In this document: piece by piece, positions 22,855 through 26,990 of the stretch
Numbering within the stretch: position 1 is the first letter of the stretch
Layout of the letters: each line of letters starts with the position of its first letter
Assembly (NCBI RefSeq): GCF_022844445.1
Contig: NZ_JALHLS010000006.1
Location: 1-64,000 of the forward strand
DNA from: Hyphomonas sp.
GTDB taxonomy: Bacteria; Pseudomonadota; Alphaproteobacteria; Caulobacterales; Hyphomonadaceae
Direction: 5' to 3'
DNA length: 64,000 nucleotides
Notes under the pieces: model-generated
Told to the model about the DNA's origin: nothing
Database searches by the model: none
Seen by the model: only the letters and a program-made list of their open reading frames with translations
Made by a program: the position numbers and the translations under genes

Positions 22855-23949
22855 TCAACCTTCGGCGGCGTCGGGCGCTTCGTCATCCTCGGACGCATTC
22901 ATCCCGGCTGCAAGGAGTTCTTCTGCAAGAAGACCTGCATTCCGGCGGATTGCATCCTCGATCTCGTTGGCGATCGGGACATTGTCCTTGAGGAACTGGC
23001 GGGCCTTTTCACGGCCCTGACCGATGCGCTCGCCGTTATAGGAGTACCAGGAGCCCGATTTCTCGACGACATTGGCCTTAACACCCAGATCGATCAGCTC
23101 GCCGGTCTTGGAAATGCCCTCGCCATAGAGGATGTCGAACTCGACCTGCCGGAATGGCGGGGCGACCTTGTTCTTGACCACCTTGACGCGCGTCTGGTTG
23201 CCGATCACCTCCTCGCGTTCCTTGATCTGGCCGATGCGGCGGATATCGAGGCGCACAGAAGCGTAGAATTTCAGGGCGTTACCGCCCGTCGTGGTCTCGG
23301 GGTTGCCGAACATCACGCCGATCTTCATGCGGATCTGGTTGATGAAGATCACCATGCATTTCGACTTGGAGATCGACCCCGTGAGCTTGCGCAGGGCCTG
23401 GCTCATCAGACGGGCCTGAAGGCCGGGCAGCGAATCGCCCATCTCGCCTTCAAGTTCCGCGCGCGGGGTGAGAGCCGCAACCGAGTCGATGACCAGAAGG
23501 TCGACGGCGCCGGAGCGCACCAACGTATCGGCAATCTCGAGTGCCTGCTCACCCGAATCGGGCTGCGAAATCAGCAGGTCGTCCAAGTCGATGCCCAGCT
23601 TGCCGGCATAGACGGGGTCCAACGCGTGTTCGGCGTCGATAAAAGCGCACACGCCGCCATTGCGCTGGGCTTCGGCCACGCAGTGCAGCGAAAGGGTCGT
23701 CTTGCCCGAGCTTTCCGGCCCGAAAATCTCGATGATCCGGCCTTTCGGCAGGCCGCCAATACCAAGGGCAATGTCCAGACCCAGCGAACCGGTAGAAATC
23801 GCCTCGATATCCATCGATTTCTTGTCGCCGAGGCGCATCACGGAGCCCTTGCCGAAGGAACGCTCGATGTTGCCGAGCGCCGTTTCGAGGGCTTTTTGCT
23901 TATCCACGCCAGTTTCCTTCTGCACGATCGCCAGAGCAGGTTTGGTCAT
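22855..23949 (-). CDS. recA: Recombinase RecA
   Basis: RecA forms filaments on single-stranded DNA, drives strand exchange and triggers LexA self-cleavage. The 364-residue protein is complete: Walker A GPESSGKT at 77-84, [10 protein letters not shown], Walker [14 protein letters not shown]-type [11 protein letters not shown], loop 2 around [18 protein letters not shown], and an acidic C-terminus ([13 protein letters not shown]). A palindrome at 24029-24046, some 80 bp upstream, is the likely damage-response operator. A transposon sits just beyond it. Confidence 0.99.
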
Positions 23950-24028: not shown

Positions 24029-24046
24029 TTTGTTCCGGAGAACAAA
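24029..24046. promoter_or_regulatory. Palindromic operator upstream of recA (SOS-box-like)
   Basis: An 18-bp inverted repeat, TTTGTTC-N4-GAACAAA with perfect 7-base arms, lies about 80 bp before the recA start. Its GTTC/GAAC half-sites are those recognised by LexA proteins. The usual alphaproteobacterial form is a direct repeat GTTC-N7-GTTC, which is not present here, so the match is to the half-site rather than the full consensus. On the minus strand TAGTGT just downstream could be a -10 element. Confidence 0.55.
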
Positions 24047-24051
24047 GAGGA

Positions 24052-24059
24052 AACTTTTT
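24052..24059. repeat. Target-site duplication, left copy
   Basis: AACTTTTT directly next to the left inverted repeat; the same 8 bases follow the right inverted repeat at 26983-26990. An 8-bp duplication is within the range (8-10) known for IS1-family elements. Confidence 0.88.
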
Positions 24060-24081
24060 GGTACTGTCTCAGTTTGAATTT
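24060..24081. repeat. Left terminal inverted repeat
   Basis: Starts GGTACTGTCTCA and ends TTTGAATTT. It matches the reverse complement of the right end (26961-26982) at 20 of 22 positions; the differences are T/C at position 3 and G/C at position 13. Confidence 0.9.
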
Positions 24082-24377
24082 TTTGGATCGATCTCGGGGG
24101 TTAGCCCGTGACTCTTCAGATAGTCGAACAGTCCGGCGGACAGCGCTTGAGCGCCCGCAATTGGCATAACCAAGCGCCCAACCGTAACCCACTTGGCGGC
24201 GCCCTTGTCGCCATTGTCAAACCTTAAGGAGGTAAGCTGTATGGATACGTTCCCGTTCTTGTGCGCAAAGAATAGTGCAGTATCTGCGTACAATTCGAGC
24301 CCCAACAAATTCTCGACAACCGGAGGAATACCCTCTGGCTGGCCCGTCGCAGCTTCAACTTCCTTTTTGTCAGTCAT
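24069..24377 (-). CDS. Transposon cargo protein, unknown function (102 aa)
   Basis: A small acidic soluble protein beginning MTDKKEVEAATGQPEG, with a core VVENLLGLELYADTALFFA and NGNVSIQLTSLRFD that looks like a beta-alpha-beta fold. The start is fixed by AGGAG nine bases upstream. The stop lies within a few bases of the left inverted repeat, so the gene fills the end of the element. No signal peptide or membrane segment. No family recognised. Base use matches the other cargo genes rather than recA. Confidence 0.75.
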   Translation of the reverse strand: MTDKKEVEAATGQPEGIPPVVENLLGLELYADTALFFAHKNGNVSIQLTSLRFDNGDKGAAKWVTVGRLVMPIAGAQALSAGLFDYLKSHGLTPEIDPKNSN

Positions 24378-24447
24378 GAAAAATTCTCCTGGTGAGAAGG
24401 TGTGGATGTCTGAGGATGGCGGTCAGACTTGGCGCCCTCTCGGCGCC

Positions 24448-25380
24448 TCACGCTGACTTCTTTTTGTAGGGACCGCGCGGCTTCGGTGGCGGTGCAGCGG
24501 TGTCAATCTTTCCGACAATCCAAGTCATGTCGTGCTGCTTGTCCGTCAGGCCAGCGGCCATTGCCGGTGTCATGCCGAGCGTCTGATGCTTCCGGCAGAA
24601 GTTGTAGTGCATGAAGTACAGCGCCAGCGCGTACAGGTGCTGCTCATACTTTTTCGAGTGTGCATTTGTCAGGCGCGTGAACCGGCGCATACCCATCCGC
24701 ATAGAGAGGTTCTGGCGCTCGACGTAGGACGTTGAAGCCTTGCGCAGATCAGGCTTACCGCACTCTGCGTCCTTCTTCACGCCAACACATTCCAGCGGGG
24801 CGTAGTGCTTGTGACCTGATTTCACGTTGGCATAGATTTTGACGATTGAGGCATGGTCAATCATGCCGCGAAAAACCTTTTTGATCGTGGGCGCGTAGGC
24901 GGAGTGACCATCCGTGTCGATCTGGATGCGATCTGCGAGACGGCCAGACAGATCCGACAGAAATGCTTCTGCGCTGACAGCGGTGCGAGTGCCTGCAAGA
25001 TAGGACACGATCAGTTTGGAGTCGGCATCGATAGCCGTCCACGTCCACACGTCGCCGTGTTCAGCGGTGAAGTTTTTGGCGGCGCCTTTGTTGCGCTCTT
25101 TCGTGTGAATGAATGACCAGATTTCATCGCACTCGACGCGCTTGGAATTGACGCCGCGCACCAGTTCGTCATGGGCCAGCAGGCAAGCCTCGCCAGCGTC
25201 CACGAGCAGCTTGGCGACCGTGTTGATGGAGACGCCAGCAATGCGGCTGATGGAGCGCATGGAAGAGCCCTCCACCATCATCTGAAGGATCAGCGCGCGC
25301 TTTTCGAGGGGAAGGACATTTGCCATGCCCTTTTGATATGAACTTTTATCCTTAGCGTCAAGCATTTTGCTGGCATCCAT
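24448..25380 (-). CDS. IS1-type DDE transposase
   Basis: A single-frame transposase of up to 310 residues. An N-terminal helix-turn-helix (MVEGSSMRSISRIAGVSI then TVAKLLVDAG) is followed by the catalytic domain with CDEIWSFIHTKERN (first acidic residue), WTAIDADSKLIVSYLAGTR, IQIDTDGHSAY (second Asp) and the C-terminal block STSYVERQNLSMRMGMRRFT containing the Glu, then HYNFCRKHQTL. These blocks are those of single-ORF IS1-family transposases. The true start may be 25323 (MANVLPLEKRA), because the first ATG lies 2 bp from a palindrome in the divergent promoter. It should mobilise the whole element. Confidence 0.9.
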   Translation of the reverse strand: MDASKMLDAKDKSSYQKGMANVLPLEKRALILQMMVEGSSMRSISRIAGVSINTVAKLLVDAGEACLLAHDELVRGVNSKRVECDEIWSFIHTKERNKGAAKNFTAEHGDVWTWTAIDADSKLIVSYLAGTRTAVSAEAFLSDLSGRLADRIQIDTDGHSAYAPTIKKVFRGMIDHASIVKIYANVKSGHKHYAPLECVGVKKDAECGKPDLRKASTSYVERQNLSMRMGMRRFTRLTNAHSKKYEQHLYALALYFMHYNFCRKHQTLGMTPAMAAGLTDKQHDMTWIVGKIDTAAPPPKPRGPYKKKSA

Positions 25381-25382
25381 AA

Positions 25383-25400
25383 AATTATGCTTGCATAATT
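25383..25400. promoter_or_regulatory. Palindrome in the transposase/P63C divergent promoter
   Basis: AATTATGC-TT-GCATAATT, perfect 8-base arms, lies between the divergent transposase and P63C genes. The same region also has a 13-base direct repeat, ATTTTGCTGGCAT, at 25364-25376 and 25433-25445. The spacing and AT-rich sequence fit a repressor operator that could keep transposition low; the repressor is unknown. Confidence 0.55.
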
Positions 25401-25456
25401 AGCATTAATGGCGGATATGCCTGCTTAACCTAATTTTGCTGGCATAGGAAGCTGTT

Positions 25457-26491
25457 ATGGATGACGGGATTGAACACAAAGGAAAGGCAAAGGGCGGCGC
25501 GGCGCGTATGGCGTTGCTCACAACCGAGCAGCGAAAGGCTCAGGCAAAAAAGGGCGCTGCTGCTCGTTGGTCGGGAGAAGTAAAGCAGGCAACCCACGGA
25601 TCTGAAGACCACCCCCTTCGCATCGGTAATATTGATATTGCCTGCTACGTGCTCGATGACGGTCGGCGCGTTCTCCAGCAATCGGGTCTGATTGGGGCGC
25701 TAAACATGTCCCATGGTGGCAGCTACAGCAAAGGTGGGGACCGCCTTGCGAAATTTACTGCGCAGGGTCGCCTAAAACCTTTTGTTTCCAGTGAGTTGAT
25801 CGACCGGACCGCTGAACCAATTCGCTTCCGCACCACGTCGGGAAGCCTAGCATACGGGTATGAGGCAACCGTACTTGCGGACATTTGTGAAGCAGTGTTG
25901 GCCGCACGAAGTGCAGGGGTATTGCAAAAGCAACAGGAACACATTGCGCGACAGGCGGAAATTCTCGTGCGCGGGTTCGCGCGCATAGGCATTATTGCGC
26001 TTGTTGATGAAGCAACCGGCTACCAGCGGGATCGCGCCAAGGATGCGCTGGCAAGGTTGTTGGAGGCTTGGGTGGCGAAAGAGCTGCAAACATGGGTGCA
26101 AACATTTCCACCGGAATTTTATGAACACATGTTTCGTCTTCGGGGATTGGATTTTTCTCCAGAGTCCGTTCGTAGGCCGCAATACTTCGGCCACCTGACC
26201 AACGACATTGTGTACAAAAGGCTGGAAGCGGGTGTCTTGAAAGAACTCAAGCGCGTCACTCCGCGCAACAGTTTAGGGCGTCCAACAGCGCGTTACACTC
26301 AAAGTCTGACCAAAAACATCGGGTACCCCAAGCTCAAAGAACATCTCGGTGCAGTGGTTGCGTTTATGCGGATAAGCAAATCGTGGGGCGAGTTCATGAA
26401 CTTGTTGGATGAGCACTACCCGCGCAAAGGGGAGACGCCGATGCTCCCGATGGATTACGATCAAGAAAAAGATGACGGCAAAGGCCTCTAA
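25457..26491 (+). CDS. P63C-domain protein (transposon cargo)
   Basis: A 344-residue protein. The N-terminus is Lys/Ala-rich (AQAKKGAAARWSG). Residues ~55-110 have IDIACYVLDDGRRVLQQSGL, LNMSHGGSYSKGG and RLKPFVSS, and the middle has the P63C hallmark LVDEATGYQRDRAKDALARL followed by PPEFYEHMFRLRGLDF and YFGHLTNDIVYKRL. P63C proteins are known from phages and mobile elements, where their job is unresolved. The start has AGGA seven bases upstream. The C-terminus overlaps the convergent 75-residue gene by 4 bp. Confidence 0.88.
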   Translation: MDDGIEHKGKAKGGAARMALLTTEQRKAQAKKGAAARWSGEVKQATHGSEDHPLRIGNIDIACYVLDDGRRVLQQSGLIGALNMSHGGSYSKGGDRLAKFTAQGRLKPFVSSELIDRTAEPIRFRTTSGSLAYGYEATVLADICEAVLAARSAGVLQKQQEHIARQAEILVRGFARIGIIALVDEATGYQRDRAKDALARLLEAWVAKELQTWVQTFPPEFYEHMFRLRGLDFSPESVRRPQYFGHLTNDIVYKRLEAGVLKELKRVTPRNSLGRPTARYTQSLTKNIGYPKLKEHLGAVVAFMRISKSWGEFMNLLDEHYPRKGETPMLPMDYDQEKDDGKGL

Positions 26492-26715
26492 TCTTTCTTC
26501 CACCGCTTCTGAGCAGCCTTCTTAGCAATCTCCGCACGCTTCTCGGGCGTCAGCTTTGACGCCCGAGCCTTGCCGCCCTTGCGGCCCATCTCTGCGGCTG
26601 CGCTGGATAGCGACTCGTCATCCTTCGGATCTTCACCCGTCGCCATCCTGGCGATCTTGATGGCGTTGCCGATGACGTCTGCGGGGCGTTTTTCGCCTTT
26701 GGGTCCTTTAGGCAT
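26488..26715 (-). CDS. Small basic KGG-type protein (transposon cargo)
   Basis: A 75-residue basic protein with SSAAAEMGRKGGKARASKLTP (the GRKGGKARA stretch seen in small proteins often labelled RNA-binding) and a C-terminal repeat-like helix EKRAEIAKKAAQKRWKK. The composition suggests nucleic-acid binding, but that is inference. A strong AAGGAGG site fixes the start. It overlaps the upstream 63-residue gene by 8 bp, so the pair is co-translated. Confidence 0.8.
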   Translation of the reverse strand: MPKGPKGEKRPADVIGNAIKIARMATGEDPKDDESLSSAAAEMGRKGGKARASKLTPEKRAEIAKKAAQKRWKKD

Positions 26716-26899
26716 GTTTGCCTCCTTTGGTCATGGCTTGGCAGTAGTGAAGCTTGACAGGACCGCCGTCATAAGTGGGGATCGTTGTCATAAACAATCC
26801 GCCCACTAGCCTCCAGCCGTCGTTGAGATTGCTTTCTACCGCTACCTCAAACGCTTCCTTTTCGTGGTTCTGGACCACAAAATATTGTGGACGGGCCAT
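26708..26899 (-). CDS. Small cargo protein, unknown function (63 aa)
   Basis: A 63-residue protein, MARPQYFVVQNHEKEAFEVA at the start, then NLNDGWRLVGGLFMT and LHYCQAMTK. The pattern of a short beta strand, helix and G-W-x-L-x-G-G strand resembles small DUF1737-type proteins. AGGAG precedes the start. It is the first gene of a pair with the KGG-type protein and lies near the right end of the element. Confidence 0.72.
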   Translation of the reverse strand: MARPQYFVVQNHEKEAFEVAVESNLNDGWRLVGGLFMTTIPTYDGGPVKLHYCQAMTKGGKHA

Positions 26900-26960
26900 G
26901 CGAACTCCTGTTGCTTGACGCTAAGCATACAGTAGTTCGCGCGGGCCTTCAAATGCCTGT

Positions 26961-26982
26961 AAATTCAAAGTGAGACAGTGCC
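26961..26982. repeat. Right terminal inverted repeat
   Basis: Reads inward as GGCACTGTCTCACTTTGAAT plus two T; 20 of 22 positions match the left end at 24060-24081. Confidence 0.9.
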
Positions 26983-26990
26983 AACTTTTT
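26983..26990. repeat. Target-site duplication, right copy
   Basis: AACTTTTT immediately after the right inverted repeat, identical to the left copy at 24052-24059. Removing the element and one copy rejoins a plain intergenic sequence between the recA operator and the DUF2093 gene. Confidence 0.88.

What the first reader, a model, noticed from the sequence alone, without database searches (positions are those of the whole stretch)
24060..26982. Complete IS1-type transposon carrying a P63C gene and three small genes
Both 22-bp inverted ends (20/22 identical), an 8-bp target duplication and an intact single-ORF transposase are present, so this is a whole, possibly active element. Unlike a plain IS1 it carries four non-transposase genes with good ribosome sites. 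IS elements with passenger genes exist, but this cargo set is one I do not recognise from the literature.
Basis: partly seen in the sequence, partly recalled or inferred. Interest (0 to 1): 0.8.

Follow-up and report, generated by a model that had tools for sequence, protein, structure and literature searches.

The report
Promoter-seeking transposon carrying swappable defence cargo
The stretch is an intact jumping gene from a widespread, little-described family that often lands at a fixed distance from gene switches (here beside the DNA-repair gene recA) and carries exchangeable cargo, often known antiviral or toxin-antitoxin genes, which makes its own unexplained cargo gene a candidate for a new antiviral gene.

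Summary
Confirmed: 24060-26982 has 20/22-bp inverted ends, an 8-bp duplication, an intact DDE transposase, a P63C gene and three small genes. It belongs to a family: 101 elements with both ends (97 exact duplications) were collected from many phyla. Besides the transposase they share one small uncharacterised gene (here 26488-26715): 78 of 84 elements found through the transposase. Between the two lies exchangeable cargo: HTH-M78 (RosmerTA-like) proteins in 24 of 101, P63C in 10, Panacea in 8; others carry restriction-modification, PD-Lambda-5, Fic, Abi_2 or unnamed genes. Insertion is promoter-linked: a -35/-10 pair starts exactly 7 bp beyond the duplication (15 bp from the element end), in either orientation, in 10 of 48 discovery elements, then 10 of 28 and 4 of 16 new ones (0.07-0.18 expected). 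Beside recA, three genomes carry elements at the same position with three different cargoes; the two congeneric insertions look independent (28 of 28 other congeners examined are empty). P63C matches no defence model, but in phages it sits alone at accessory, often lysogeny-linked places. Best reading: a promoter-targeting, IS1-related transposon shuttling defence/TA genes, with P63C a candidate new one. New variant of a known kind.

The parts
24052..24059 (.). target-site duplication, left copy (AACTTTTT)
   Evidence: read; congener G058 has an empty site with AACTTTTT (L120)
26983..26990 (.). target-site duplication, right copy (AACTTTTT)
   Evidence: read
24060..24081 (+). terminal inverted repeat, end nearest recA
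   Evidence: similar ends across the family
26961..26982 (-). terminal inverted repeat, other end
24448..25326 (-). DDE transposase, IS1-related (ORF open to 25380; probable start 25326, 292 aa)
   Evidence: PF03400 29.4 bits (cut-off 24.1), NF033558 73.2 bits (cut-off 100); D85, D157, E221 (numbered from the 25380 start; assignment as the DDE triad is mine) in 100 of 100 transposases of at least 250 aa
25333..25365 (-). predicted tnp promoter: -35 TTGACG (25356-25361) inside the family motif ATGCTTGA (25358-25365), -10 TATCAA (25333-25338)
   Evidence: ATGCTTGA in 43 of 101 tnp upstream regions against 5 of 202 flank segments; near-fixed position before the start; hexamers read by eye
26488..26715 (-). 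orf75: core accessory gene, GG.KGG.ARA..LTPE.R.EIAKKAA..RW protein
   Evidence: 78 of 84 and 95 of 101 (includes 17 elements chosen through orf75); alignment; no Pfam, NCBIfam or PADLOC hit
25457..26491 (+). P63C gene (344 aa), main cargo
   Evidence: PF10546 E 5e-30; phrog_2384 E 2e-113; 10 of 101 elements
26708..26899 (-). orf63, small gene, DUF1737-like below cut-off
   Evidence: PF08410 19.8 bits (cut-off 24)
24069..24377 (-). orf102, small cargo gene downstream of tnp
   Evidence: ORF; 41% relative in the element of G090 (L113); no family
24032..24045 (-). recA promoter region hit by the insertion: palindrome GTTCCGGAGAAC (24032-24043) and -35-like TTGTTC (24040-24045, - strand), 6 bp from the duplication
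   Evidence: promoter role inferred
22855..23949 (-). recA, host gene downstream of the targeted promoter
   Evidence: ORF (named from its protein sequence); relatives aligned

Best explanation
An intact, low-copy transposon of an IS1-related DDE family with two core genes: the transposase and a small basic accessory protein (Orf75). The transposase joins GGTA[GC]TG-type ends into an 8-bp staggered target. The target is chosen relative to promoters, most detectably with the -35 box 15 bp from the element end, so the host gene can keep its promoter; here, and in two other genomes, the target is the recA promoter. Exchangeable cargo sits mostly between orf75 and tnp and is often a known antiviral or toxin-antitoxin module, so the element acts as a carrier of defence genes; in this copy the cargo is P63C plus two small genes. 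Shown by calls: anatomy, core pair, promoter-fixed insertion in part of the family, recurrent insertion at recA, different cargo at one site, recurring defence/TA cargo. Inferred: that transposition is active; that P63C defends or excludes phages; that Orf75 regulates transposition or guides targeting; that cargo is exchanged by recombination.
For: Ends and duplication in 101 elements, 97 exact, 100 with a transposase ORF of at least 250 aa. orf75 in 78 of 84 elements found through the transposase, 76 of them on the same strand upstream. Reverse scan: 31 of 299 genomes have orf75; 25 of these 31 have the transposase, and in all 25 an orf75 copy lies on the same contig and strand within about 3 kb (rows compared by eye). 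Promoter at offset 7, score at least 8: discovery 10 of 48 (background 0.178 per offset), hold-out 10 of 28 (0.106), second hold-out 4 of 16 (0.068); Poisson 7e-15, 4e-17, 8e-7. recA site: of 30 fetched loci two filled, 27 empty, one cut by a contig end and empty on its second contig; the two filled genomes' duplications equal the empty sites of other congeners (G058 AACTTTTT, G074 AACTTTCT). Terricaulis L015 is inserted at the same position. Cargo: HTH-M78 24, P63C 10, Panacea 8 of 101; RmrA models match 11 of 118 cargo ORFs, while in 118 flanking ORFs no model matched more than 2. Same site, other cargo: G036 carries an RmrA-type protein. Transposase regions 90-91% alike with different cargo: L069/L074, L201/L206. 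Phage P63C: overlaps the end of cI in SPN9CC, in the repressor-integrase cluster in Petra and Javan441.
Against: No promoter at offset 7 reached the score in 68 of 92 tested elements, and in the second hold-out the right-hand side alone gave only 1 of 16, level with other offsets. The recA insertions have offset 6 with a non-canonical -35 and the comM-site insertions appear to lie downstream of the -10 (by eye), so targeting is not one simple rule. P63C and the three small proteins match no PADLOC model; the P63C model (pLDDT 74, pTM 0.48) has no useful PDB match, so its function rests on company kept. 19 of 40 cargo proteins scanned singly had no Pfam hit. Flanking ORFs also hit PADLOC models (110 models, against 206 for cargo; only 25 are listed in each output). 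The transposase is below NCBIfam's IS1 cut-off. Transposition was not observed.
Confidence: 0.72

Rival explanations
1. An ordinary IS1-family element with arbitrary passenger genes (a 'tIS'): the cargo is whatever was trapped, orf75 is one more passenger, and insertion is near random.
For: tIS are known in several IS families (PMC7986276, passage); 19 of 40 cargo proteins have no Pfam hit; duplications show no strong consensus; most elements show no detectable promoter at offset 7.
Against: orf75 in 78 of 84; the offset-7 peak recurs in two further sets; the same cargo families recur in the hold-out and differ from flanking ORFs.
Confidence: 0.12
2. The elements at recA in this genome and in G036 descend from one ancestral insertion, and only the cargo was replaced in place by recombination.
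For: The transposase (82% DNA) and the recA-side flank (83%) have diverged to a similar extent; orientation and site are identical.
Against: 28 of 28 other congeners examined are empty, among them genomes with 84-89% recA-region identity to this one where G036 has 83%; both duplication copies agree within each genome but differ between the two (AACTTTTT, AACTTTCT), and each equals an empty site in another congener; position 9 of both ends differs between the two elements. No species tree was built.
Confidence: 0.12
3. The apparent promoter targeting is survivor bias: insertions inside genes are lost and what remains lies near promoters.
For: Not excluded by a test: how many insertions are intergenic was not counted.
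Against: Survivor bias should not give a peak one base wide at offset 7 on both sides with offsets 6 and 8 far lower.
Confidence: 0.06
4. P63C is not a defence gene but a phage-derived regulator (anti-repressor-like) that controls the element or a resident prophage.
For: Weak similarity to a phage anti-repressor family (phrog_2899 E 0.02); in three of seven phage or satellite neighbourhoods read it sits with the repressor and integrase.
Against: Only 10 of 101 elements carry it and other cargo takes its place, so it is not needed by the family; in DC1, Lodos, SEN34 and 611R6 it stands at single-gene accessory positions.
Confidence: 0.3

Closest known systems
IS1 family, single-ORF and large members (ISMhu11 group; recalled, no paper found)
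   Same: DDE transposase related to IS1 (PF03400; NF033558 the best NCBIfam hit), ends beginning GGT, 8-bp duplication; ISfinder lists large members (recalled)
   Different: below the NCBIfam IS1 cut-off; 1.9-4.7 kb; second core gene orf75; defence/TA cargo; promoter-linked insertion
tIS (insertion sequences with passenger genes)
   Same: passenger genes between the ends of an IS-like element (PMC7986276, passage)
   Different: at least 400 bp beyond orf75 and tnp in 93 of 93 elements measured, mostly in one slot, rich in defence/TA genes, with a conserved accessory gene
TnGBS, ISLre2 and ISKra4-group elements (Mutator-type DDE)
   Same: insertion 15-17 bp upstream of the -35 of housekeeping promoters; promoters on both sides when the ends are near-perfect repeats (PMC3942029, passages)
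   Different: unrelated transposase (IS1-related here); no conjugation family among the cargo families listed; convergent specificity
RosmerTA and Panacea toxin-antitoxin / defence systems
   Same: HTH-M78 (RmrA) and SocA/Panacea proteins are the commonest named cargo besides P63C (PMC10440598, passages)
   Different: the window's own cargo, P63C, matches neither
P63C proteins of temperate phages (PF10546, phrog_2384)
   Same: sequence, including the ARW-type N-terminal module in most aligned
   Different: here carried by a transposon rather than a prophage

Membership tests
IS1 family | DDE catalytic triad | tested here: met
   D85, D157, E221 in 100 of 100 transposases aligned; which residues form the triad is inferred
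IS1 family | terminal inverted repeats beginning GG(T) and 8-9 bp target duplication (recalled) | tested here: met
   window; 101 elements, 97 exact duplications, 99 of 8 bp; GG...CC ends were required by the search
IS1 family | Pfam DDE_Tnp_IS1 gathering score | tested here: met
   29.4 bits against 24.1; DDE_Tnp_IS240 also passes, 30.5 against 27
IS1 family | NCBIfam IS1 equivalog cut-off | tested here: not met
   73.2 bits against 100; hence filed as IS1-related, not as IS1
IS1 family | insA/insB' two-frame transposase of classical IS1 (recalled) | tested here: not met
   single ORF; Orf75 has no InsA/HTH_Tnp_IS1 match
IS1595 family | NCBIfam IS1595 cut-off | tested here: not met
   25.7 bits against 75
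tIS | non-transposase genes between the ends of an IS-like element | tested here: met
   window; family
promoter-targeting elements (TnGBS, ISLre2, ISKra4) | fixed 15-17 bp spacing from element end to -35 | tested here: met
   family level: 15 bp, 24 of 92 elements at score 8; for the window itself 14 bp and a non-canonical -35
promoter-targeting elements (TnGBS, ISLre2, ISKra4) | Mutator-type transposase | tested here: not met
   best matches are IS1/IS240 models; IS256 only 11.3 bits against 150
known anti-phage defence systems | PADLOC model match of the window's cargo | tested here: not met
   0 models for P63C and the three small proteins
known anti-phage defence systems | protection against phage | not testable with these tools
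   needs a plaque assay

The most novel reading that the evidence does not exclude
Orf75 is a dedicated targeting adaptor that brings an IS1-related transposase to promoter-bound RNA polymerase, and the family is a specialised shuttle that parks interchangeable antiviral modules beside host promoters (recA, comM) without breaking the genes, with P63C a new single-gene antiviral system also used by temperate phages.
Probability: 0.22. Interest if true: 0.9.

Novelty: new variant of a known kind. Interest (0 to 1): 0.74.

Why it matters
Defence genes are known to move on phages, satellites, plasmids and large transposons (general knowledge). A compact transposon family seen in many phyla that carries small interchangeable modules gives a direct way to look for new defence genes: read the slot between orf75 and tnp. 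Promoter-fixed insertion by an IS1-related transposase would be a separate origin of a specificity described for Mutator-type elements, and Orf75 makes its mechanism testable. Recurrent landing at recA suggests how a transposon can sit at a key promoter while the gene stays intact; expression was not tested.

Tried and rejected
Shared operator of the orf75 and tnp promoters as a family rule: the window shows it (inverted repeat I2) and G036 by eye, but a 20-nt comparison in 76 elements hardly exceeded shuffled pairs (mean 13.3 against 13.0); only the tnp motif ATGCTTGA generalises.

Folds of P63C and Orf75 (three helices, pLDDT 74, pTM 0.32): no useful PDB match (best E 0.65 for P63C, none for Orf75); profile search of PDB sequences with P63C gave nothing better than E 0.49, with the transposase nothing. 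By eye the middle of P63C recalls KilA-N/BRO-type domains; that is memory, not a test.

tRNA or other RNA genes as the targeted genes: some tRNAs lie in the fetched stretches (L050 has three just after the element), but not as a rule (25 loci, 12).

Consensus of the duplication: none strong, at most 0.32 bit per column. Targeting of LexA-type boxes was considered because the recA and comM sites look like such boxes (recalled motif); the TTGACA sites do not.

Literature: listings of the held library for P63C with transposase, 'P63C domain', IS1595/passenger gene/IS1 family, ISMhu11, tIS, IS1 family with upstream insertion, passenger gene with toxin-antitoxin and defence, IS1 family transposase with cargo and insertion specificity upstream of promoters showed no description of this family in the titles and abstract openings listed. 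Only passages of PMC10440598, PMC7986276, PMC6536676 and PMC3942029 were read. Subscription papers, ISfinder and TnPedia could not be read, so earlier cataloguing of members is likely.

Rows dropped: L077 (same sequence as L020) and L241 (same contig as L015); L221, L222, L231, L238 (weak or atypical ends) from the 101. L222 was still among the 28. No ends: 30 of 86 discovery loci (this set holds overlapping loci of one genome), 11 of 43, 1 of 20 had no transposase. Promoter tests further dropped inexact duplications and repeats under 16/24; L001 and L111 were left out. Before those filters the discovery count was 12 of 55. The rule (offset 7) was fixed, but the flanks printed had been seen before the tests. 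The 17 elements of the last set were found through orf75, so they cannot speak for its frequency. In one search two M78 matches at E 5e-6 and 9e-6 and five P63C matches at E 2e-8 to 1e-6 were not counted; the seed proteins of each profile are among the counted ones (12, 4 and 6).

Full report
Observation. The 2,923-bp element is real: 20/22 inverted ends, AACTTTTT on both sides, a transposase ORF, a P63C gene and three small ORFs. It occurs once in its genome. The transposase is closest to IS1 among NCBIfam models (73.2 bits, under the cut-off of 100) and passes Pfam DDE_Tnp_IS1; I file it as IS1-related.

The family. A scan of one genome per species with the transposase kept 80 of 107 confirmed loci, from many phyla by their record titles. 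A search for paired ends with a duplication confirmed 56 of 86 transposase-bearing loci. More came from 385 class-level and 398 phylum-level genomes (33 and 16 with a match; 40 regions), from three regions of the window's own family (L111-L113), with ends in 32 of 43, and from 20 order-level regions chosen through orf75. After dropping duplicates and doubtful cases there are 101 elements (55, 29 and 17): 1,862-4,745 bp, median 3,225; 97 exact duplications; 100 with a transposase ORF of at least 250 aa; D85, D157 and E221 in 100 of 100. Only L069/L074 and L201/L206 share 90% identity over 500 bp or more, along 872 and 1,140 bp. Copy number is low: 5 of the 33 class-level genomes have more than one match.

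Core accessory gene. The 75-aa product of 26488-26715 has a small relative in 78 of 84 elements found through the transposase or DNA, 76 of them on the same strand upstream of tnp; in all 101 the count is 95, 93 so placed, but 17 of these were found through orf75. The consensus is MpkGpkg.KRP.D....A..v..IATGE, then GG.KGGkARa..LtpE.R.eIAkkAA..RW. In reverse, 31 of 299 genomes have orf75; 25 of the 31 have the transposase, each with an orf75 copy on the same contig and strand within about 3 kb; 6 have none. Some members lack the C-terminal module (for example L050, L082, L092, L093); a similar module opens P63C proteins, also of viral contigs. A tnp promoter motif, ATGCTTGA, lies upstream of tnp in 43 of 101 elements against 5 of 202 flank segments. 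Its near-fixed place suggests that the transposase starts at 25326, since the codons upstream translate this motif.

Cargo. In 93 elements with orf75 upstream on the same strand, the gap between orf75 and tnp has a median of 1,256 bp (300 bp or more in 91), and 51 of 93 have 300 bp or more after tnp. Named cargo: HTH-M78 in 24 of 101 (two weak matches not counted), P63C in 10 (five weak matches not counted), Panacea in 8. Others: N6 methylase with specificity subunit, a type IIG model (L044); D12 methylase with PD-Lambda-5_A (L050); Fic (L051); Abi_2 and a STAND-like ATPase (L053); N6 methylase (L054); methylase with Mrr domain (L068); PemK/MazF and Gp49 among the discovery ORFs; HipA and Fic among the hold-out ORFs. 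In the hold-out 76 ORFs, M78 matched 8, P63C 2, Panacea 1. PADLOC RmrA models match up to 11 of 118 cargo ORFs; in 118 flanking ORFs of the same loci no model matched more than 2, though 110 models were hit there against 206 for cargo, and each output lists only 25. ORFs were called mechanically. Of 40 cargo proteins scanned singly, 19 had no Pfam hit, so 'defence' describes the recognisable part.

Promoter targeting. Pre-insertion sites showed TTGACA (5 of 6 or better) starting 7 bp beyond the duplication in 6 of 55 sites on one side, and 4 and 2 of 55 at the two mirrored positions. With a -35/-10 score of at least 8, offset 7 was the top of 500 offsets on each side, 12 of 55 in all. With offset 7 fixed: discovery 10 of 48, background mean 0.178; hold-out 10 of 28, background 0.106, five per orientation; second hold-out 4 of 16, background 0.068, and 7 of 16 at score 6, background 0.206. 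In the second hold-out the left side gave 3 and the right side 1, the latter level with other offsets. Poisson values: 7e-15, 4e-17, 8e-7. The element end is thus 15 bp from the -35. A weaker peak at offset -3, one helical turn away, was seen in the discovery set (6 of 48 at score 6) and 2 of 28 at score 8 in the hold-out. TnGBS, ISLre2 and ISKra4-group elements insert 15-17 bp upstream of -35 boxes (PMC3942029, passages) with transposases of another superfamily. In 68 of 92 elements no such promoter was scored; phyla with other promoter types, a poor matrix or other site classes may explain part of that.

recA. In this genome and congener G036 the elements sit at the same base in the same orientation, 111 bp from recA, with duplications AACTTTTT and AACTTTCT. 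Of 42 genus genomes with the recA region, 30 loci were fetched: two filled, 27 empty, one cut by a contig end; the last, G071, is empty on its other contig. Each duplication equals an empty site in another congener (G058, G074). That argues for separate insertions; no species tree was built. L015 (a Terricaulis MAG) has a third element with its duplication 8 bp from a GTTCnnnnGAAC-like box, as in the other two, 107 bp from the RecA match; empty sites around it were not examined. Cargoes differ: P63C here; HTH-M78 (RmrA) with a 222-aa protein in G036; in L015 a 238-aa protein without a match in Pfam or PADLOC and a 142-aa protein with one marginal PADLOC match. The spacing is offset 6 with a TTGTTC box, and these were not counted in the promoter statistics (L015 was in the discovery set and did not score).

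comM. In another genus, 27 of 30 genomes match the comM side; of 25 loci read, 4 have an element end at one position and 21 do not (comM named from the protein by eye). L234, L239 and L240 have duplications GATGCGAG, AGGGATCC and CGGGTCTC, transposases 80-85% alike in DNA and no DNA similarity between orf75 and tnp, apart from short matches of 31 and 61 bp after tnp; L234 has P63C, L240 HTH-M78. By eye this position lies downstream of a -10, so promoter association takes another form there.

P63C. Relatives: 16 of 72,556 plasmid records, 49 of 50,697 phage records, 17 viral-contig loci. Seven phage or satellite neighbourhoods were read: overlapping the end of cI (SPN9CC), with repressor and integrase (Petra, Javan441), between recT and integrase (DC1), near integrase (Lodos), alone on the opposite strand among NinG-type genes (SEN34), near Arc/Ant (611R6). 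Such places often hold prophage-expressed genes, exclusion genes among them (general knowledge). Together with its place among defence cargo this supports, but does not show, a defensive role. No PADLOC match, no informative fold.

Mechanism. Shown: ends, duplication, core pair, promoter-fixed sites in part of the family, recurrent sites, different cargo. Inferred: insertion upstream of the -35 leaves the host gene expressed; cargo changes by recombination between conserved orf75 and tnp segments; Orf75 regulates tnp or guides targeting. P63C as defence 0.5, as phage-type regulator 0.3.

Novelty. IS with passenger genes (tIS) are known (PMC7986276, passage), and large IS1 members are recalled from ISfinder. 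The listings searched showed no account of this family, its accessory gene, its cargo or its promoter targeting. New variant of a known kind.

Noticed in passing
L234, L239, L240, L253 (genus g467): Elements of this family begin at one base-precise position beside comM in 4 of 25 loci read, 21 without; the duplications of L234, L239 and L240 differ, so several insertions are probably independent (L253 resembles L234 and its other end was not examined).
   Followed up: partly
L018 and L019: Two loci of one MAG are over 99% identical around orf75 and tnp, but L018 has about 1.6 kb of extra DNA between them; parts of the region recur inverted further on. Ends were not confirmed.
   Followed up: no
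L043 4159-5121, L061 5846-6799, L063 5820-6737: Cargo proteins of 305-320 aa after tnp; two have weak similarity to proteasome subunits and the third resembles one of them.
   Followed up: no
window 26488-26715 and 25457-26491: The ARW-type helical module of Orf75 also forms the N-terminus of P63C and occurs in other large cargo proteins such as L054 (684 aa) and L082 (508 aa); function unknown.
   Followed up: partly
window 25347-25364 and 26912-26929: Near-identical inverted 18-mers (94%) at the tnp promoter and upstream of orf63/orf75, with a similar pair in G036: possible shared operator, not general in the family.
   Followed up: partly
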